This document shows, in pieces, positions 5,191 to 11,823 of a DNA stretch of 11,823 bases (position 1 is its first letter; every line of letters begins with the position of its first letter). The stretch is from Candidatus Rokuibacteriota bacterium (GTDB taxonomy: Bacteria > Methylomirabilota > Methylomirabilia > Rokubacteriales > JACPHL01): contig JACPHL010000040.1 of the NCBI GenBank assembly GCA_016188625.1, forward strand, positions 1 through 11,823, given 5' to 3'. The notes below the pieces were generated by a model. The model worked only from the letters and a program-made list of their open reading frames with translations, was not told where the DNA came from and searched no databases. A program made the translations under genes and the position numbers.

Positions 5191-5913
5191 ATGGCGCGGG
5201 CCTTCCGTCAGGAGCTCCGGGGCGCGGCCGAGCCGATCTGGCGGGCCATCTTCGCCCACCCCTTCGTCCGCGAGGTCGGCGCCGGGGCGCTCGCCCGCGA
5301 GAAGTTCGGCTTCTTCATCCGCCAGGACTTCCTCTACCTCCGGGAGTTCACCCGTGTCCTCTGCCTCGGCGGGGCCAAGGCGTCCGATCTGGACACCCAG
5401 GACCTCTTCGCGCGCCACGCCCACAACACCGTCCTGGTCGAGCGCGCCATGCACCAGACCTTCGCCCGGCGGCTCGGCCTGACGGCCCGGGCGCTCGAGG
5501 CCACCGAGCCCGCGCCGGCGACCGTCGCCTACACCCGCCACCTCCTCGCGGTGGCCGCAGCGGGGAGCCTGGGGGAGCTGGTGGCCGCGGTCCTCCCCTG
5601 CTACTGGGTCTACCGGGAGGTGGGGCGACGCCTGAAGCGCCGGCTCCCCCGGGAGCCGCTCTACGCCCGGTGGATCCGCGCCTACGCCTCGGCCCAGTAC
5701 GGCCGGCTGGTCCAGGAGCAGCTCGGGCTGGCGGATCGGCTCGGCCGGGCGGCGGGCGAGGCGGAGCGGGCCCGGATGCGCGAGCACTTCGTCACCTCGA
5801 GCCGCTACGAGTACCTCTTCTGGGATCAGGCCTGGAAGCCCGAGGGCTGGCCGAGCGAGCGGAGCGAGCGCCAGAGGGGCGGAGCCCCTATGGGGAGCGC
5901 CGTGAGGCCGTAG
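5191..5913 (+). CDS. tenA: TenA-family thiaminase II / aminopyrimidine aminohydrolase
   Basis: TenA enzymes salvage thiamine breakdown products by hydrolysing 4-amino-5-aminomethyl-2-methylpyrimidine to the hydroxymethyl pyrimidine, in the cytoplasm. The family block is clear from HPFVREVGAG through FFIRQDFLYLREFTRV. All residues known for Bacillus subtilis TenA appear with a constant offset of two: D46 (Asp44), Y49 (Tyr47), Y114 (Tyr112), C137 in LPCYWVY (Cys135), Y141 (Tyr139), Y165 (Tyr163) and E207 in RYEYLFW (Glu205). The active-site cysteine puts it in the TenA_C class. The homologous part ends near residue 220; the last 20 or so residues (SERSER... to the stop) are encoded by repetitive, hairpin-forming DNA and are probably an acquired tail. 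No other thiamine gene is in the window. Confidence 0.92.
   Translation: MARAFRQELRGAAEPIWRAIFAHPFVREVGAGALAREKFGFFIRQDFLYLREFTRVLCLGGAKASDLDTQDLFARHAHNTVLVERAMHQTFARRLGLTARALEATEPAPATVAYTRHLLAVAAAGSLGELVAAVLPCYWVYREVGRRLKRRLPREPLYARWIRAYASAQYGRLVQEQLGLADRLGRAAGEAERARMREHFVTSSRYEYLFWDQAWKPEGWPSERSERQRGGAPMGSAVRP
5853..5889. repeat. Tandem 9-mer and hairpin forming the 3' end of tenA
   Basis: GAGCGAGCG occurs twice in tandem (5853-5861 and 5862-5870) and is followed by a perfect stem AGGGGC (5875-5880) and GCCCCT (5884-5889) with a 3-nt loop. It encodes the low-complexity C-terminal tail of TenA. It looks like a small GC-rich repeat inserted over or fused to the end of the gene; comparison with other TenA genes would show where the original stop lay. 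Confidence 0.55.
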
Positions 5914-5984
5914 GCCCCGCGGCGCGACGGGTCCAGAGCGTGCGAGCGCACCGCGTGACTCGGGTGGGCCCCTAGGGCGGGTGG

Positions 5985-6007: not shown

Positions 6008-6370
6008 ATGCCGACCCAGCCGTCGAGGAAGATCGAGCGGGTCCCCAACCCGCACCCCGAGCGGGACTACGAGGTCGATCTCGCGGTCCCGGAGTTCACC
6101 TGCCTCTGCCCCCTGACCGGCCAGCCCGACTTCGCCACCATCCGGATCCGCTACGTCCCCGACCAGTGGCTCGTCGAGCTGAAGTCGCTCAAGCTCTACA
6201 TGTGGTCGTACCGGGACGAGGGCGCCTTCCACGAGGACGTGACGAACCGGATCCTCGAGGACCTGGTGGAGGCGCGGGCGCCGCGGCGGATCGAGGTGGT
6301 CGGGGACTGGAACGTCCGGGGCGGGATCAAGACCGTCGTCACCGCCCGCTACGAGCAGAAGCCGGCCTGA
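6008..6370 (+). CDS. queF: preQ0 reductase (7-cyano-7-deazaguanine reductase), QueF type I
   Basis: QueF reduces 7-cyano-7-deazaguanine (preQ0) to preQ1 with two NADPH in queuosine tRNA modification. The 120-residue length is close to the short single-domain (YkvM-like) QueF subfamily. The nucleophilic cysteine is C34 in [15 protein letters not shown] (Cys55 of Bacillus subtilis QueF), the proton donor is D41, and the substrate-binding pair is H75-E76 in AFHEDV. The family-specific QueF motif is [16 protein letters not shown] (57-72), which distinguishes it from GTP cyclohydrolase I folds. A GAGGAG ribosome site sits 5 nt upstream. None of queC, queD or queE is adjacent, so the pathway partners must lie elsewhere. 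A GC-rich hairpin directly follows the stop. Confidence 0.96.
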
Positions 6371-6372
6371 TC

Positions 6373-6392
6373 CGCGCCGGCCAGCCGGCGCG
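6373..6392 (+). terminator. GC-rich hairpin after queF
   Basis: Starting 2 nt after the queF stop, CGCGCCGGC (6373-6381) and GCCGGCGCG (6384-6392) form a perfect 9-bp inverted repeat with a very short loop. No T tract follows, so it would be an atypical terminator or a 3'-end-protecting hairpin. Confidence 0.45.
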
Positions 6393-6422
6393 CCCCGGCC
6401 GCGAGCCCCCAACGCCACCGAG

Positions 6423-6605
6423 CTAGCCGCGATTATTCATGCACGGCTTCCCGCGAGGCGGACGGGTCCTGTCGCGCCGGGCAGCCCCACTCGGCTCGCC
6501 ACCCCCGCCCGGTGTGGGGTCCCCCGGCTCGCCTCGTGGGGCGCCCCGCCCGGCGCGCCACCCGTCCGACGTCCGCTGGCGGCGGACACGAATAATCCCG
6601 GCTAG
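6423..6605. mobile_element. 183-bp fold-back element with 16-bp terminal inverted repeats (MITE-like)
   Basis: CTAGCCGCGATTATTC (6423-6438) is repeated inverted at 6590-6605 with 15 of 16 matches. The arms keep pairing inward with interruptions: GGACGGGT, CGCGCCGGGC and GCCCCAC of the left arm all recur, inverted and in order, in the right arm, so most of the element folds back on itself. It contains no credible gene. CTAG at both outer ends could be part of the repeat or a 4-bp target duplication, which some IS5-type elements make. It sits in intergenic DNA between the convergent queF and dehydrogenase genes. A structured non-mobile RNA or a bidirectional terminator is the main alternative. 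No transposase is in the window. Confidence 0.6.
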
Positions 6606-6628
6606 GCCCGCTGCGTGGCTCGCGCGCT

Positions 6629-6832
6629 CTGACCCTCGGCGTGCGGATTGGCTGGTCCGCTTCGAGCGCCGGCTTTGCCGGCGCACCTCTGGGGGGAGGC
6701 CAGTCGAGGCCCGAAGCGTTCGCCGAAGGGCGAACGCCCCGGCTTTGCCGGGAGGGCCGTCCGAACGGGGTCCCCGTCGGGCCGATAGGCCCGGTGGGGT
6801 GTTCGGTTGGGGGTGGAACCCCCCTTCGAGTA
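6629..6832 (-). repeat. Dispersed 3'-end structured element, dehydrogenase copy (with about 90-nt insertion)
   Basis: On the minus strand, directly after the dehydrogenase stop, come ACTCGAAGGGGGG, a short loop and a C tract (hairpin about 6809-6824), then CCGAAC. After an extra segment with three more hairpins (6778-6793, 6738-6752 and 6716-6737) comes a block starting CCTCCCCCC (6691-6699). That block contains the perfect hairpin GCGCCGGC/GCCGGCGC (6666-6684), then TCGAAGCGGA and a GCGGA/TCCGC hairpin. The same parts in the same order follow the phasin gene at 10350-10457. The gap between genes here is otherwise non-coding. Confidence 0.7.
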
Positions 6833-7837
6833 TCAAGGGAAGACCGCGACCTTGATCGCCTCGGGGCGGCGGTGGGTCTCGAGGGCGTCGGCGATCGCCT
6901 CGAGCGGGAAGCGGTGGGTGATGAGGGGGGCGGTCCGGACCCGACCCTCGGCGAGGAGGTCCAGGGCCTCGCCGAATTCGCGCTGGTAGATCATCGAGCC
7001 GAGGATCTGGAGCTCCCGGCGGACCACCCGGAAGAAGTTCACCGAGGAGGGGGCGTGGGGGAGACCGGTCAGGACCACGCGCCCCCCCGGTCTCGCCAGC
7101 CCGAGCGCGACCTCCACCGCCTCGGGCGTCCCCGCGGTCTCCACTAGTAGGTCCACCCCGTCGCGGCCGGCAAAGGCGCGCGCCGCTCCGACCCCCGCAT
7201 CCGCCCCCAGCGGCGCCGCGGCTTCCGCCCCCAGCTCCCGCGCCAGGGCGAGCCGGCGCTCGCTCCGGGAGAGCACCAGCACCCGGCACCCCCGGGCCCG
7301 GAGGACCTGGAGGGCGAGGAGGCCGAGCGTTCCGACCCCGAGGACCGCCGCGCTCTCGCCGGAGCGGGGCGCGCCGCGGCCGACGGCCCGGACGACGACG
7401 GCCAGCGGCTCGACCAGGAGGAGCTGCTCCTCGGCGATGGCGTCCGGCGCCGGCCAGCAGCAGCGCTCCGGGACCGCGGCCAGCTCGGCGAAGCCGCCCG
7501 CGACGTCGATCCCGATCGCCGTGCGCCGGAGGCAGAGGTTCGACTGCCCCTCCCGGCAGAGGTCGCAGACCCCGCAGCTGTAATTGGGCTCGATGGCGAG
7601 CCGCTCGCCTGGCCGGATGCGCGTGACCCCCTCCCCTACCGCCGCGGCCTCACCGATGAACTCGTGGCCCATGACCAGGGGGTAGCGGACCGGGCGCTCC
7701 CCGGACCAGATCCGGTAGTCGGTGCCACAGACCCCGGCGGCCCGGACCCGGACCAGGACCTCGCCGGATCGGACGGACGGCTCCCGGGTCGCCTCGACCC
7801 TGAGGTCCCGGGGGGCGTGGAGGACGGCCGCCTTCAT
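6833..7837 (-). CDS. Zinc-dependent medium-chain alcohol/polyol dehydrogenase
   Basis: This 334-residue NAD(P)-dependent oxidoreductase belongs to the MDR superfamily, closest in pattern to threonine/sorbitol dehydrogenases. The GroES-like catalytic domain carries zinc ligands C37 (AAGVCGTDYR), H58 and E59 (MGHEFIGE) and E143 (LVEPLAV). Structural zinc cysteines are C88, C91, C94 and C102. The Rossmann domain has GVGTLG (167-172). The second strand ends in VLVLSRSERR without an acidic residue, which leans toward NADP, though this is weak. The substrate is not predictable. The start is ATG 7837 with GAGGGG 6 nt upstream; it overlaps the stop of the 22-codon SDR remnant (ATGA). It is cotranscribed with the acyl-CoA synthetase upstream, suggesting alcohol/aldehyde or lipid-derived substrates. 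A structured repeat begins 2 nt after its stop. Confidence 0.92.
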   Translation of the reverse strand: MKAAVLHAPRDLRVEATREPSVRSGEVLVRVRAAGVCGTDYRIWSGERPVRYPLVMGHEFIGEAAAVGEGVTRIRPGERLAIEPNYSCGVCDLCREGQSNLCLRRTAIGIDVAGGFAELAAVPERCCWPAPDAIAEEQLLLVEPLAVVVRAVGRGAPRSGESAAVLGVGTLGLLALQVLRARGCRVLVLSRSERRLALARELGAEAAAPLGADAGVGAARAFAGRDGVDLLVETAGTPEAVEVALGLARPGGRVVLTGLPHAPSSVNFFRVVRRELQILGSMIYQREFGEALDLLAEGRVRTAPLITHRFPLEAIADALETHRRPEAIKVAVFP

Positions 7838-7902
7838 CGCGAGCCCCTCAGCGCCTCGATCGCCACCCGCCCGTCGAGCCTGAGCTGATCGAAGACCCCC
7901 AT
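7834..7902 (-). pseudogene. 22-codon remnant of an SDR gene start
   Basis: An ATG at 7902 opens a frame reading MGVFDQLRLDGRVAI and then seven residues to a TGA that overlaps the dehydrogenase ATG. The first 15 residues match the usual beginning of short-chain dehydrogenases, in which the next residues would be the VTGxxxGxG nucleotide-binding turn; here that turn is absent. It starts 14 nt after the acyl-CoA synthetase stop, just where an operon gene should begin. The most likely reading is an SDR gene whose interior was deleted, leaving start and stop in frame. It might still be translated and couple the dehydrogenase start to the upstream gene. A chance small ORF is possible. Confidence 0.55.
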
Positions 7903-7916
7903 GGCCGGATCGCCGA

Positions 7917-9707
7917 TCAGGTGTAGAGGGACTCGAGGAGATCGCGGTACTTCTCCGCGACCACCTTCCGCCTCACCTTGAAGGTCGGGGTCAGCTCGCC
8001 CGTGACCTGGGTGAACTCCTCGGGGAGGACGGCGAAGCGCTTGACCCGGGCGTAGGAGGCGAGCCGGGCGTTGGCCGCCTCCACGATCTGGCGCACGCGC
8101 TCCACGATCATGGGGTGACGGGCCAGCTCGGCGTGGGGAAGCCCGGGGAGGCCGAGGGCCCCGGCGAACCTGGCCAGCCCCTCCGGGTTCAGGGTCAGGA
8201 GGACGACCGGGTACGGGCGCCGGTCGCCGTAGACCACGGCCTGGCTGACGAGGGGATCGCCCTGCAGGAGGTTCTCGATGTTCTGGGGGGCGACGTTCAT
8301 CCCGCCCGCGGTGACGAGGAGGTCCTTCTTCCGGTCGGTGATCGTCAGGAACCCCTCGGCGTCCAGGACCCCGATGTCCCCGGTGTGGAACCACCCCTCG
8401 GCGTCGAAGACCTCGGCGGTCGCCTCCGGCTTTTTGTAGTACCCCGCCGCGATGTTGGGCCCCCGGGCCAGGATCTCGCCGTCCCCGGCGATCCTGAGCG
8501 TGACGCCCGGGAGGGCCTGCCCCACGGTCCCGAACTTGAAGCGATCGGCCCGGTTGAAGGTCAGCGCCGGGCAGGTCTCGGTCAGGCCGTACCCCTCCAG
8601 GATCAGGATCCCGGCCGCGTGGAAGAACTCGGCGATCTCGCGGCCCAGGGGCGCCCCGCCCGAGACGCAGAAGCGGAGGCGGCCGCCGAGGGCCCGGTGG
8701 AGCTTCCCGAAGACGAGCCGATGGGCGAGGACGTGCCGGAGCCCGAGCCAGATCGGGATCGGACGGCGGGCCTGCTGGAGCCGGCTCACAGCCCGGCCGA
8801 CCCCGAGCGCCCAGTAGAAAAGCCGCTTCTTGAGGGACTGGCCGCCCTCCACCTGGGCCAGGATCCTGGCGTAGACCTTCTCGAAGAGGCGGGGGACGCT
8901 GCAGATGAAGTAGGGCGAGACCTCGCGGAGGTTGTCGGAGACCTTCTCCAGGCTCTCGGCGAAGGCGGTAACGAACCCGTTGTGGATCCCCTGGTACGCC
9001 TCCAGACGGGCGAAAGAGTGCGCGAGGGGGAGGAAGAGGAGGTGGACCGCCCCCTCGGGGGCCGGCAGGACCTGGCCGGTCGAGCGGAGCATGGCGAGGT
9101 GGTTGACGTGGGTCTGGACGACGCCCTTCGGGGGGCCGGTGGTCCCCGAGGTGTAGACGATGGTCGCCACGTCCTCGGCCCGGGCCGCGGCGAGCCGCGC
9201 CTCGAGCGCGGGCCCGAGCTCGGCCGCCCGCTCCCGGCCGCGGGCGCGGAGCGTCGCCCAGTCCAGGATCCCGGGGTCCGCCGCGCCGGCCGCCCCCGAG
9301 ATCAGGACGATCTGCTCGAGCCCCTTCAGCCGGGCGCGGACCTCGAGGAGCTTGGCGAGCTGGGTCTCGTCCTCGACGAAGATCGCCTTGGCCTCGGCGT
9401 CCTCGACGATGTAGGCGAGCTGCTCGGCGGGGTAGCTCGGGTAGATGGGGATGGTGACGCCCCCGGCCGAGAGGATCGCCAGATCGGCCTGGACCCACTC
9501 GGCCCGGCTCTGGGAGAGGAGCGCGACCGCCTCCCCGGGCTGCCGCCCGAGCGCCAGGAGCCCGAGGGCCAGCTCGCGGATGGTCTCGCCGAGCTGGCGC
9601 CAGGTGGTCTCGGCCCAGACGCCGGAGACCTTGGCCTTCTGGGCCGGGCGATCCCCGAGCCGCTCGACGCGCGCCCAGAACATCCGGGGCAGGGTCTCCT
9701 CAGGCAT
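7917..9707 (-). CDS. Long-chain fatty acyl-CoA synthetase (AMP-forming, FAA1/FadD15-like)
   Basis: This 596-residue enzyme of the adenylate-forming superfamily activates fatty acids to acyl-CoA through an acyl-AMP intermediate; it is cytoplasmic or membrane-associated. Motifs in order: P-loop YTSGTTGPPKGV (185-196), a FACS linker region around PLAHSFARLEAYQG (227-240), SGGAPL (349-354), adenine motif EGYGLTET (371-378), GWFHTGD (438-444), hinge DRKKDL (458-463) and the C-terminal lysine motif LTPTFKVRRK (572-581). Length and the FKVRRK ending match the FAA1 group rather than short-chain acetate or propionate synthetases. The start is ATG 9707 with no strong ribosome site. It heads an operon with an SDR remnant and an MDR dehydrogenase, and faces the phasin promoter across a 210-nt regulatory gap. 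Products may feed beta-oxidation or PHA precursors; this is inferred. Confidence 0.95.
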   Translation of the reverse strand: MPEETLPRMFWARVERLGDRPAQKAKVSGVWAETTWRQLGETIRELALGLLALGRQPGEAVALLSQSRAEWVQADLAILSAGGVTIPIYPSYPAEQLAYIVEDAEAKAIFVEDETQLAKLLEVRARLKGLEQIVLISGAAGAADPGILDWATLRARGRERAAELGPALEARLAAARAEDVATIVYTSGTTGPPKGVVQTHVNHLAMLRSTGQVLPAPEGAVHLLFLPLAHSFARLEAYQGIHNGFVTAFAESLEKVSDNLREVSPYFICSVPRLFEKVYARILAQVEGGQSLKKRLFYWALGVGRAVSRLQQARRPIPIWLGLRHVLAHRLVFGKLHRALGGRLRFCVSGGAPLGREIAEFFHAAGILILEGYGLTETCPALTFNRADRFKFGTVGQALPGVTLRIAGDGEILARGPNIAAGYYKKPEATAEVFDAEGWFHTGDIGVLDAEGFLTITDRKKDLLVTAGGMNVAPQNIENLLQGDPLVSQAVVYGDRRPYPVVLLTLNPEGLARFAGALGLPGLPHAELARHPMIVERVRQIVEAANARLASYARVKRFAVLPEEFTQVTGELTPTFKVRRKVVAEKYRDLLESLYT

Positions 9708-9797
9708 GCTCGCCGACGATCGCGCGGCCGGGCGATGACGCTCTGCGCTGCCCCGACCGAGCCGATGTCTTGAAGTCCCGTATCACGGTGAAGCCAG

Positions 9798-9837
9798 AAT
9801 GTTACTATAATTCATAATGTTACAAGTCATTTTGACT
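9798..9837. promoter_or_regulatory. AT-rich operator-like region between acyl-CoA synthetase and phasin genes
   Basis: AATGTTAC occurs twice (9798-9805 and 9816-9823), exactly 18 nt apart, and is followed by a dyad AGTCA (9825-9829) and TGACT (9833-9837). A TATAGT on the minus strand (9804-9809) could be the -10 of the acyl-CoA synthetase promoter, though no -35 match is seen. The block is conspicuously AT-rich against its surroundings. Repeats spaced at nearly two helical turns suggest a regulator binding one face of the DNA; its identity is unknown. Confidence 0.45.
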
Positions 9838-9852
9838 CGATGCGTAATTTCC

Positions 9853-9881
9853 TTGACACGCCATGACGCAGCGTGTTAATC
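9853..9881 (+). promoter_or_regulatory. Phasin gene promoter
   Basis: A perfect TTGACA (9853-9858) is followed after 17 nt by TTAATC (9876-9881), predicting transcription from about 9888. The message would carry a 30-nt leader with the consensus ribosome site AAAGGAGG (9905-9912), 5 nt before ATG 9918. Strong promoter plus strong ribosome site suits an abundant granule-coat protein. Confidence 0.7.
9864..9878 (+). promoter_or_regulatory. Candidate PhaR operator at the phasin promoter
   Basis: TGACGCAGCGTGTTA fills the spacer and enters the -10 element of the phasin promoter. The same 15-mer with one change occurs on the minus strand at 11047-11061, again ending in the -10 element, at the phaR promoter. 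PhaR proteins are known to repress phasin and their own genes and to let go when granules form. The central ACGC-A-GCGT here is a short palindrome. Confidence 0.55.
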
Positions 9882-9917
9882 TTCGGGGCAGAACGCAAGG
9901 CTCGAAAGGAGGACACG

Positions 9918-10349
9918 ATGACCCAGACCGAGTTCACCCAGTTCACGGGCAAGGCGATGGAGGCCTTCTCCCTCTTCGCCGAGACCAACCAGCGCGTCGT
10001 GCAGGAGCTGGCGGATCTCGCGGCGACCACGGCCAAGGACGGGGCGCGCCTCTACGGGGAGCTCCAGGCCAACCTGGTCCAGGCCGCCCGGGAACAGCAG
10101 GCCGCCCTGCTGGACGGCCCCGCCGGCTGGCCGGAGACCCAGAAGGACCCCTTCCAGTGGTACCAGAAGGGCATCACCGCCGTGGTCGAGGGCTCCCAGC
10201 GGGCCTTCCGGCTCTTCGAGGCCGACGCCCAGGCGCTCACGCGGCTGGCCGAGCGCCTCGAGGGGAACACCACGCGAACCGCCAAGGAGATCCAGGAGGC
10301 GATGGCCGCCTACGCGACCCGCCTGAAGGAGCTCCACCCCCAGGGCTAG
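9918..10349 (+). CDS. Phasin-like PHA granule-associated protein
   Basis: This 143-residue, almost wholly helical, alanine- and glutamine-rich protein has no cysteine, no signal peptide and no membrane helix. The pattern FTQFTGKAMEAFSLFAETNQRVVQELADLAATTAKDGARLYGELQ followed by a second long amphipathic helix region (about 84-137) resembles phasins, which coat polyhydroxyalkanoate granules. The family is poorly conserved, so the call leans on context: a PhaR-type regulator and a FabG/PhaB-type reductase are adjacent and the promoter shares a motif with phaR. The frame is open from a GTG at 9873, but that codon lies inside the promoter; AAAGGAGG 5 nt upstream fixes the start at ATG 9918. A structured repeat starts 1 nt after the stop. 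Confidence 0.8.
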   Translation: MTQTEFTQFTGKAMEAFSLFAETNQRVVQELADLAATTAKDGARLYGELQANLVQAAREQQAALLDGPAGWPETQKDPFQWYQKGITAVVEGSQRAFRLFEADAQALTRLAERLEGNTTRTAKEIQEAMAAYATRLKELHPQG

Positions 10350-10457
10350 GAGACTCGGAGGGGGGCTGACGCCCCCCTTCCGAACCTCCCCCCAAAAGCT
10401 GCGCGGGCAGAGCCCGCGCTCGAAGCGGAACACTCCATCCGCGAGTCGAGGGTCGAG
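10350..10457 (+). repeat. Dispersed 3'-end structured element, phasin copy
   Basis: Directly after the phasin stop comes GAGACTCG, then a 10-bp hairpin with one G-T pair (10357-10366 with 10371-10380, loop TGAC), then CCGAACCTCCCCCC. A second hairpin GCGCGGGC (10401-10408) with GCCCGCGC (10412-10419) follows, then TCGAAGCGGA and a GCGGA/TCCGC stem. The dehydrogenase gene is followed by the same series in the same gene-relative orientation. Between the copies the second hairpin differs at one base pair by a compensated change (C-G versus G-C). It probably acts as a transcription end or mRNA 3' stabiliser; a mobile palindromic repeat is an alternative. Confidence 0.72.
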
Positions 10458-10508
10458 CAGCCGCGGGGATCCTACTCGCACAGGTTTCTAGCCAGCCATC
10501 GGCACGCC

Positions 10509-10538
10509 CGGGGCCGGGGAGATCCCTCCCCGGCCCCG
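10509..10538 (-). terminator. 13-bp perfect hairpin after phaR
   Basis: CGGGGCCGGGGAG (10509-10521) pairs perfectly with CTCCCCGGCCCCG (10526-10538) around ATCC, 7 nt beyond the phaR stop. Such a strong stem between convergent genes is probably a terminator, perhaps bidirectional, although neither strand shows a following run of T. Confidence 0.65.
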
Positions 10539-10545
10539 CGTCGTT

Positions 10546-11031
10546 TCACGACCGCCGTCGCTCGGCGAGCCTCGCCTCCAGCTCGCTGAGCCTCGACTTC
10601 AGCGTCGCCACCTCGGCCCGCAGCCCCTCCAGCTCGTCGCCCCCCCCTCCCTTCCCGCCCGGCGGGGCCCACCAGCCGCTCCGGGCGGCCCACTCCCGGA
10701 AGAACCGCTCGGCCTCGCGCTGGCTCCCGAGCACCCCGGCGAGGCTCGCCTTGAGCGAGTTCTGGAAGAACTCCTGCCACCCCTCGCCGTGCTTGATCAG
10801 GAGGTGGAGGAAACTCGCGGGGAGGAACGGCCCCCCGCTCCGCTCCTTCTCGAGGATGATCTGGGCCAGGGTCAGGGTGGTCAGGTCCTCCCCGGAGGTG
10901 GCGTCCACCACCCTGATCTCGCGCCCCTCCCGGATCAGCTCCTCCAGCTCCTCCAGGGTGACGTAGCGGCTCCGGCTCTGGTCGTAGAGCTTCCGGTTGG
11001 CGTACCGCTTGATCAGGATCGGCTCGTCCAT
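10546..11031 (-). CDS. phaR: PHA accumulation regulator, PhaR-type DNA-binding protein
   Basis: This 161-residue protein begins with the PHB/PHA accumulation regulator DNA-binding domain: ILIKRYANRKLYDQSRSRYV (5-24), LEELEELIREGREIRVVDA and SGEDLTTLTLAQIILEKE (46-63). PhaR proteins bind both DNA and nascent PHA granules and repress phasin genes and themselves. The second part (about 67-120) is a mixed helical region, then a glycine-rich hinge (about 123-131) and a C-terminal coiled coil (132-160, leucine heptads). A GTG at 11052 would add seven residues but lies within the -10/operator region, so ATG 11031 is preferred; with the -10 at 11043-11048 the mRNA would be nearly leaderless. It faces fabG divergently. 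The call means the proteobacterial repressor, not the Bacillus synthase subunit of the same name. Confidence 0.92.
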   Translation of the reverse strand: MDEPILIKRYANRKLYDQSRSRYVTLEELEELIREGREIRVVDATSGEDLTTLTLAQIILEKERSGGPFLPASFLHLLIKHGEGWQEFFQNSLKASLAGVLGSQREAERFFREWAARSGWWAPPGGKGGGGDELEGLRAEVATLKSRLSELEARLAERRRS

Positions 11032-11042
11032 GGAGGTGCCCC

Positions 11043-11071
11043 ATTCTAACACCCTGCGTCAAATCCGGCAA
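11043..11071 (-). promoter_or_regulatory. phaR promoter with overlapping 15-mer operator candidate
   Basis: On the minus strand TTGCCG (11066-11071), 17 nt, TAGAAT (11043-11048), predicting transcription about 5 nt before the phaR ATG. The motif TGACGCAGGGTGTTA (11047-11061) fills the spacer and touches the -10, matching the phasin promoter motif at 14 of 15 positions. This layout fits autorepression. Confidence 0.6.
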
Positions 11072-11082
11072 AGCCCCGGTGC

Positions 11083-11088
11083 TATAAT
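11083..11088 (+). promoter_or_regulatory. -10 element of the fabG-type gene
   Basis: A perfect TATAAT lies 32 nt upstream of the fabG ATG, with no good -35 at the usual spacing. The shared 15-mer (11047-11061) would lie just upstream of its -35 region, so PhaR or an activator could affect both divergent genes. The ribosome site GGAGGGG (11108-11114) is 5 nt before the ATG. Confidence 0.5.
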
Positions 11089-11119
11089 CCCCCTCGAAGA
11101 CGACGCTGGAGGGGACGCC

Positions 11120-11793
11120 ATGAAGCTCGCGGGGCGGACGGCCGTGGTGACGGGGGGGTCTCGAGGGATCGGTCGGGCGATCGCCCTGGCCCTGGCCGAG
11201 GAAGGGGCCGACGTGGCGATCAACTACGTCGCCAACGAGGGGGCGGCGAAGGCGGTCGCCGAGGAGCTGAAGCGGCGGGGGCGGAGGACGCTCGCGGTCC
11301 GGGCGGATGTCAGCGACTTCCGGGACGCCCAGCGGATGGCCGAGGAGGCCCGGAAGGCCCTCGGCGACATCGACATCCTGGTGAACAACGCCGGGGTGAC
11401 CAGCGACAAGACCTTCGTGAAGATGGAGCCCGCCACCTGGCGGCGGGTCCTCTCGATCAACCTCGACGGGGTCTTCAACTGCACGAAGGTCTTGGTGGGG
11501 CCGATGATCGAGCGCGGCTGGGGGAGGATCGTCAACATCACCTCGGTCATCGGCCAGACGAGCTGGCCGGCAAGGGGGTCACGGTCAACGCCGTCGCCCC
11601 GGGGTTCATCGAGACCGAGCTGGTGGAGACCATCCCGGAGCGGGTGCGTCAGCGCCTCCTGGATCAGATCCCGCTGAAGCGGTTCGGGCGGGCCGAGGAG
11701 GTGGCGCGGGCGGTGGTCTATCTGGTCTCCTCCGACGGGGACTACATCACCGGCGCCGAGCTGCCGGTCAACGGCGGCCTGCTCATGCACTGA
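11120..11793 (+). pseudogene. fabG: FabG/PhaB-type 3-ketoacyl (acetoacetyl-CoA) reductase, frameshifted by internal deletion
   Basis: The first 147 codons are a typical SDR reductase: TGGSRGIG (11-18) for NADP(H), NNAG (89-92), N114 and catalytic serine S142 in ITSVIGQT. After 11560 the frame is lost, but the next frame (from about 11560) continues as ELAGKGVTVNAVAPGFIETE and on through PLKRFGRAEEVARAVVYL to VNGG and a TGA at 11791. Compared with FabG, about 24 residues between VIGQT and ELAGKG are missing, including the catalytic YxxxK. The shift implies loss of 3n+1 nt, probably 73. Together the two parts plus the gap make the normal length near 248. The product cannot be an active reductase. 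Context suggests NADPH-dependent acetoacetyl-CoA reduction for PHA. An assembly error is a real alternative. Confidence 0.88.
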
Positions 11794-11823
11794 TAGACTC
11801 GGAGGGGGGTTACACCCCCCTTC
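11794..11823 (+). repeat. Dispersed 3'-end structured element, fabG copy (cut by window edge)
   Basis: Immediately after the fabG stop comes TAGACTCGGAGGGGGG, then a short loop and the matching C tract followed by TTC at the window edge. The stem GGGGGGT (11804-11810) pairs with ACCCCCC (11814-11820) and is extended by outer pairs. It matches the start of the element after the phasin and dehydrogenase genes; the remainder should lie beyond 11823. Confidence 0.65.

What the first reader, a model, noticed from the sequence alone, without database searches (positions are those of the whole stretch)
6629..11823. A structured repeat placed directly after the stop codon of three unrelated genes
The dehydrogenase (minus, from 6832), phasin (from 10350) and fabG (from 11794) genes are each followed within 2-5 nt by ACTCG(A/G)AGGGGGG, a 3-5-nt loop and a C tract. 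The two complete copies then share CCGAAC, CCTCCCCCC, a GCGC-type hairpin, CTCGAAGCGGA, a GCGGA/TCCGC hairpin and CGAGGGTC in the same order and the same orientation relative to the gene. Consistent docking at stop codons argues for a selected 3'-end function (termination, mRNA protection) or a mobile repeat that targets gene ends.
Basis: seen in the sequence. Interest (0 to 1): 0.8.

Follow-up and report, generated by a model that had tools for sequence, protein, structure and literature searches.

The report
Mobile hairpin repeat at gene ends
Rokubacterial genomes carry a roughly 145-base mobile DNA repeat made of hairpins that inserts at CTAG-like sites, which in these GC-rich genomes lie mostly at stop codons and between genes, so copies pile up right behind genes without damaging them; it resembles known REP and MITE repeats, but no enzyme that moves it was found.

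Summary
The repeat is real. ACTCG(A/G)AGGGGG occurs 103 times in the source genome (2.6 Mb MAG) versus 4 for the reversed motif. A covariance model of the full element (138 nt, hairpins) hits 59 of 60 genomes of the order (Rokubacteria) and 1 of 35 others of the class. Half of the left ends (50/99) begin -1 to +4 nt from a same-strand stop codon (mode +3); chance is about 2%.

The interpretation needs changing. Orientation is not fixed: in tandem gene pairs it is 31 with and 36 against. What is fixed is absence from divergent gaps (0/59, versus 22/45 convergent and 63/283 tandem). The flank is often YTAR (CTAG) even where there is no stop codon, at both ends. YTAR is very rare inside genes and about a third of non-coding YTAR sites are stop codons, so a CTAG-targeting mobile element would dock at stops. 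Two congeneric genomes show filled and empty sites, one with the insertion exactly after an intact stop codon.

Best reading: a REP/MITE-like non-autonomous mobile element bounded by CTAG. No Y1/RAYT (PF01797) or IS701-type (PF13546) transposase was found in this genome. A 3'-end RNA function is possible but unproven; there is no U-tract.

The parts
10346..10491 (+). Complete element copy after the phasin-like gene, including the CTAG on either side (10346-10349, whose TAG is the stop codon, and 10488-10491, which is not a stop codon of a called gene)
   Evidence: Model R1 hit 10353-10487, 128 bits, E 3.5e-28; flanks read from sequence
10353..10383 (+). Hairpin 1 of the phasin copy (ACTCGGAGGGGGG..CCCCCCTTCCGA)
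   Evidence: Fold; consensus structure
10401..10419 (+). Hairpin 2 of the phasin copy (GCGCGGGC-AGA-GCCCGCGC), the stem with compensatory changes across copies
10425..10442 (+). Hairpin 3 of the phasin copy (GCGGA..TCCGC)
6602..6831 (-). Element copy after the dehydrogenase gene: hairpin 1 (6831-6803), extra hairpin modules, then the rest of the element down to CTAG 6602-6605
   Evidence: Model R1 hit 6593-6728(-), 78 bits, E 4.6e-16; repeat depth along 6590-6832; fold z -6.1
11797..11823 (+). Third copy after the fabG reading frame, hairpin 1 only, cut off by the contig end
   Evidence: Model R1 hit, 30 bits, cut at 3'
5927..5976 (+). Weak remnant of the element's right part behind the TenA-like gene, ending CTCGGGTGGGCCCCTAG (5959-5975)
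   Evidence: Model R1 25.6 bits, E 0.002; blastn to the element at L043:5431-5384, 83% over 48 nt; right-end pattern hit

Best explanation
It is a non-autonomous mobile repeat, similar to REP/BIME and MITE elements, that inserts at YTAR sites (best CTAG). The full form is about 145 nt: CTAG-NAG-[hairpin 1, CCTCCCCCC linker, hairpin 2, hairpin 3, ACTCGGACRGG]-CTN-CTAG, with modular variants. CTAG is palindromic, so orientation is random. YTAR is nearly absent from coding DNA in this 71% GC genome but common at stop codons (C-TAG), so surviving insertions lie directly behind intact genes, and insertions in divergent promoter gaps are lost or never made. Shown here: copy number, ends, flanks, location bias, orientation neutrality, filled and empty sites, constraint on paired bases. 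Inferred: that an unidentified transposase acting in trans recognises the ends or hairpins, that CTAG is duplicated on insertion, and that insertions in promoter regions are purged by selection. Any effect on mRNA 3' ends is secondary and untested.
For: 103 copies of the motif versus 4 for the reversed control; 50/99 left ends within -1..+4 nt of a same-strand stop versus 1.8% expected. YTAR at the left junction in 31/50 copies at stops and in 17/32 copies beside antisense genes, against a 2.5% background. CTAG or TTAG after the right end in copies with no gene end within 12 nt. YTAR: 97 in coding DNA, 163 at stops, 264 in other non-coding DNA of 0.8 Mb. Orientation 31 versus 36 in tandem pairs, 0 of 59 divergent gaps; 17/17/14/0 for full-length hits. 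Filled/empty pair: G087 'GCC CTAG AGCGG' versus G088 'GCC CTAG CAG ACTCGG...CTAG', same gene end (L127/L161). In three G088 copies the left CTAG belongs to another repeat, not to a stop codon. Present in 59/60 genomes of the order. Stems conserved with compensatory changes.
Against: No candidate transposase was found: PF01797 and PF13546 are absent from this genome. Only one clean filled/empty pair for the element itself, and even there a second repeat follows it and the right flank differs by some bases. 12 of 24 full-length copies at stops lack YTAR, and some TGA stops show the same +3 spacing, so the stop codon or selection may matter beyond the motif. Terminal inverted repeats are only about 3 bp besides CTAG.
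Confidence: 0.72

Rival explanations
1. The repeat is kept by selection as a 3'-end RNA structure (terminator, block to 3' exonucleases, or insulator between convergent genes), and docking at stops reflects that function rather than target choice.
For: Placement within a few nt of stops, enrichment in convergent gaps and absence from divergent gaps, conserved stems with compensatory changes.
Against: No U-tract, none flagged by the terminator scan; orientation is random; copies are polymorphic between close relatives; the right half of the element is kept although hairpin 1 alone would serve; the CTAG flank also occurs away from stops.
Confidence: 0.17
2. It is a true REP/BIME family moved by a Y1 (RAYT, IS200/IS605-like) transposase that has been lost or lies in the missing part of this MAG.
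For: Hairpins with a TAG-containing foot, gene-3' location and avoidance of divergent gaps match REPs (PMC3733652); no long terminal inverted repeats; Y1 genes exist in a minority of relatives.
Against: The foot is CTAG/YTAR on both sides, not a fixed GTAG on one side; Y1 is absent here and in most repeat-rich genomes of the order, including several that are at least 93% complete.
Confidence: 0.08
3. It is an artefact of assembly or binning of a fragmented MAG.
For: Contigs often end inside the repeat and the fabG frame next to a copy is broken.
Against: The same element is in 59 of 60 genomes of the order and nearly absent outside it; 103 versus 4 for the reversed motif.
Confidence: 0.01

Closest known systems
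GTAG/CGTC-tagged REP elements and BIMEs (PMC3733652, PMC2817692)
   Same: Short hairpin repeats in many copies, mostly between convergent or tandem genes, very close to gene 3' ends; GTAG REP ends are reported to often supply a TAG stop codon.
   Different: Bounded by CTAG/YTAR on both sides rather than tagged by GTAG on one; about 145 nt with several different hairpins in a fixed order; no RAYT/Y1 gene in this genome and in most carriers.
Bacterial MITEs such as Correia/NEMIS and RUP (reviewed in PMC2229807)
   Same: Small non-autonomous interspersed element with a TA-containing target, hairpin-forming, polymorphic insertions, modular or nested copies.
   Different: GC-rich rather than AT-rich; terminal inverted repeat reduced to CTAG-NAG; boundary is 4-bp CTAG/YTAR rather than TA; no parent insertion sequence identified.
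IS701 (and IS5) type insertion sequences with exact 4-bp target duplications (PMC2266710 for IS701; YTAR preference from my own knowledge)
   Same: A 4-bp boundary that fits the CTAG seen on both sides.
   Different: DDE_5 (PF13546) is absent from this genome and most repeat-rich relatives; IS5-type transposases were not tested; no long inverted ends.

Membership tests
REP/BIME (RAYT-associated) | Short palindromic extragenic repeat in high copy, in convergent and tandem but not divergent gaps | tested here: met
   103 copies; 22/45 convergent, 63/283 tandem, 0/59 divergent gaps
REP/BIME (RAYT-associated) | Conserved GTAG (or CGTC) tag at one foot of the hairpin | tested here: not met
   Flank is YTAR/CTAG with three variable nt, on both sides
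REP/BIME (RAYT-associated) | RAYT/Y1 transposase (PF01797) in the genome | tested here: not met
   0 matches in this genome (84% complete) and in most carriers
MITE | Short non-coding interspersed element, presence/absence polymorphic | tested here: met
   138-nt model, 71 hits at E below 1e-11 in 0.8 Mb; filled and empty sites
MITE | Terminal inverted repeats | tested here: inconclusive
   Only CTAG-NAG / CTN-CTAG shared between the two ends
MITE | Target-site duplication | tested here: inconclusive
   CTAG on both sides of filled sites and once in the one clean empty site; few pairs
MITE | Parent insertion sequence with the same ends | not tested
   PF01797 and PF13546 searched and absent; other transposase families and end-to-end searches not done
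Intrinsic transcription terminator | GC-rich hairpin followed by a U-tract | tested here: not met
   No repeat copy flagged in 6300-11823; sequence after hairpin 1 is UUCCGAACCUCCCCCC
Rfam RNA family | Match above the curated threshold | tested here: not met
   0 matches in the window

The most novel reading that the evidence does not exclude
An order-wide family of portable gene 3' ends: hairpin cassettes moved by an unknown enzyme that places them at stop codons, where their conserved stems act as mRNA 3' structures, so that the element spreads by being harmless or useful at that one position.
Probability: 0.15. Interest if true: 0.75.

Novelty: new variant of a known kind. Interest (0 to 1): 0.5.

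Why it matters
It shows how a mobile repeat can colonise gene 3' ends by targeting a motif (CTAG/YTAR) that a GC-rich genome largely confines to stop codons and non-coding DNA, with no need to recognise stop codons as such. That is a simple, testable account of stop-codon docking, which has also been noted for REP elements. No description of this family was found in the papers searched for this phylum, and the enzyme that moves it is an open question.

Tried and rejected
REP/RAYT by Y1 transposase: PF01797 searched in this genome and across the phylum; not supported. IS701-type driver: PF13546 absent here. Known RNA family: none in Rfam. Phage or plasmid origin: no blastn match in the phage or plasmid collections. 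Canonical terminator: no U-tract. Fixed orientation relative to the gene: rejected, 31 versus 36. Stop codon as the sole recognised feature: weakened by CTAG flanks away from gene ends. DNA-uptake signal pairs: considered; not formally tested, but only 4 of 99 motif copies lie inside genes, unlike such signals as I know them. The flank tally at the end used the wrong letter case and is void; one search replaces it. A search pattern for right ends with 3 mismatches gave as many control hits, so right ends were only accepted together with a left end or by the model.

Full report
OBSERVATION. ACTCG(A/G)AGGGGGG starts 1 nt after the dehydrogenase stop, 3 nt after the phasin stop and 3 nt after the fabG stop; the last copy is cut by the contig end. 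The folds of the two long copies are much more stable than shuffles (z -6.1 and -4.6). Rfam has no match.

GENOME-WIDE. The window is G000:C143 of a 2.6 Mb, 344-contig MAG, 84% complete. ACTCGRAGGGGG occurs 103 times against 4 for the reversed motif. I fetched 0.80 Mb, mostly contigs chosen because they carry the motif, so densities must be taken and not from this sample. Genes were called with a home-made codon-usage program, which is a source of error for individual sites. Of 99 sites, 50 begin -1 to +4 nt from a same-strand stop (25 of them at exactly +3), against 1.8% of oriented intergenic positions. Only 4 lie inside called genes. So docking is real.

NOT ORIENTED. In 32 of 99 sites the left neighbour is the 5' end of an antisense gene. 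In several of these the element's right end lies at the stop of the preceding gene. In tandem gene pairs 31 elements run with the genes and 36 against; 60 full-length model hits give 17 and 17, with 14 convergent and none divergent. None of 59 divergent gaps carries a copy, while 22 of 45 convergent and 63 of 283 tandem gaps do; divergent gaps make up about 19% of this intergenic DNA, so about 16 occupied gaps would be expected by length.

ANATOMY. The commonest full form is about 138 nt (alignment A1, 83% mean column identity): hairpin 1, CCTCCCCCC, hairpin 2, hairpin 3, a GC-rich stretch and a right end ACTCGGACRGGCTC. The left flank is CTAG plus three nt (mostly NAG in G088) and the right flank is CTAG. 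Read inward from either side, both ends are CTAG-NAG. Variants contain extra hairpin modules (as in the dehydrogenase copy), hairpin 1 only, or a nested, unrelated inverted-repeat element. Stems are kept while sequence changes: in 61 copies from three genomes there are 42 double-changed paired cells versus a mean of 15.8 (maximum 24) in shuffles. In A1, 97.9% of cells pair and 13 cells change on both sides against 5.6 in shuffles, 0/500 reaching it, although only two pairs carry these double changes.

WHY STOP CODONS. YTAR (mostly CTAG) is found at the left junction in 31/50 copies at stops and also in 17/32 copies beside antisense genes, where it is not their stop; the background is 2.5%. CTAG or TTAG follows the right end in copies with no gene end nearby. 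In three G088 copies the left CTAG belongs to another repeat. In the fetched 0.8 Mb there are 97 YTAR in coding DNA, 163 at stop codons and 264 in other non-coding DNA; away from elements, 123 and 220. A YTAR-directed element therefore lands at stops or between genes. Stop codons might still be favoured beyond the motif: TGA copies with the same +3 spacing exist, and 12 of 24 full-length copies at stops lack YTAR.

MOBILITY. G087 and G088 are congeneric relatives, about 93-95% identical at most aligned loci. L127/L161: G087 reads GCC CTAG AGCGG, whereas G088 reads GCC CTAG CAG ACTCGG...CTAG followed by a second repeat; the gene end and its stop are unchanged. L115/L156 and L128/L184 differ by composite insertions. 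L136/L179 shows a different inverted-repeat element inserted at CTAG with a clean 4-bp duplication. The window dehydrogenase ends in AIKVAVFP* (read), like its named Rokubacteria orthologues (for example SIKVAVVP*), in none of which an element follows the stop.

DISTRIBUTION. The 12-mer is enriched in many genera of the order and at background elsewhere. Model R1 hits 59 of 60 order genomes, many at the cap of about 34 scored candidates, and 1 of 35 other genomes of the class. Named relatives are Candidatus Rokuibacteriota. No similar DNA is in the phage or plasmid collections.

DRIVER. PF01797 (Y1; RAYT and IS200/IS605) and PF13546 (IS701 type) are absent from this genome and from most repeat-rich relatives. 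The moving enzyme is unknown.

KNOWN KINDS. GTAG REPs sit near 3' ends, are mainly in convergent and tandem gaps and often supply a TAG stop (PMC3733652). This family behaves similarly but has no fixed GTAG tag and no RAYT here, so it works like a REP or MITE without being shown to be either. I found no earlier description in the papers searched for this phylum.

VERDICT. The finding is real and worth recording: a new order-wide REP/MITE-like family whose stop-codon docking is mostly explained by a CTAG-type target. A 3'-end RNA function remains possible but unproven.

Noticed in passing
window 6423-6605: A second repeat with inverted ends CTAGCCGCGATTATTCATG...CACGAATAATCCCGGCTAG, with copies in L047, L101 and L042; it shares the CTAG at 6602-6605 with the dehydrogenase copy of the element.
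   Followed up: partly
window 11120-11793: The fabG frame is broken: a deletion with frameshift after ITSVIGQT removes the stretch with the catalytic YxxxK; pseudogene or assembly error.
   Followed up: partly
window 5873-5976: The C-terminal tail of the TenA-like protein (GWPSERSERQRGGAPMGSAVRP) is encoded in DNA that recurs at L080:1-89 (88% identity) and runs into a weak remnant of the element, so a repeat seems to have supplied a new C-terminus and stop.
   Followed up: partly
own genome, e.g. L042, L047, L052, L103: Another high-copy repeat of about 200 bp with long inverted ends GGGAGGCGTCGGCCCC...GGGGCCGACGCCTCCC, often nested inside or beside the element.
   Followed up: partly
L136:1150-1240 versus L179:8536: In relatives G087/G088 an inverted-repeat element with ends TGCCGTTCCAACT inserts with a clean CTAG duplication; CTAG seems to be a shared hotspot for several repeat families in this order.
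   Followed up: partly
L055, L060, L063: Two copies of hairpin 1 and 2 in tandem, spaced about 90-95 nt, suggesting local duplication or repeated insertion.
   Followed up: no
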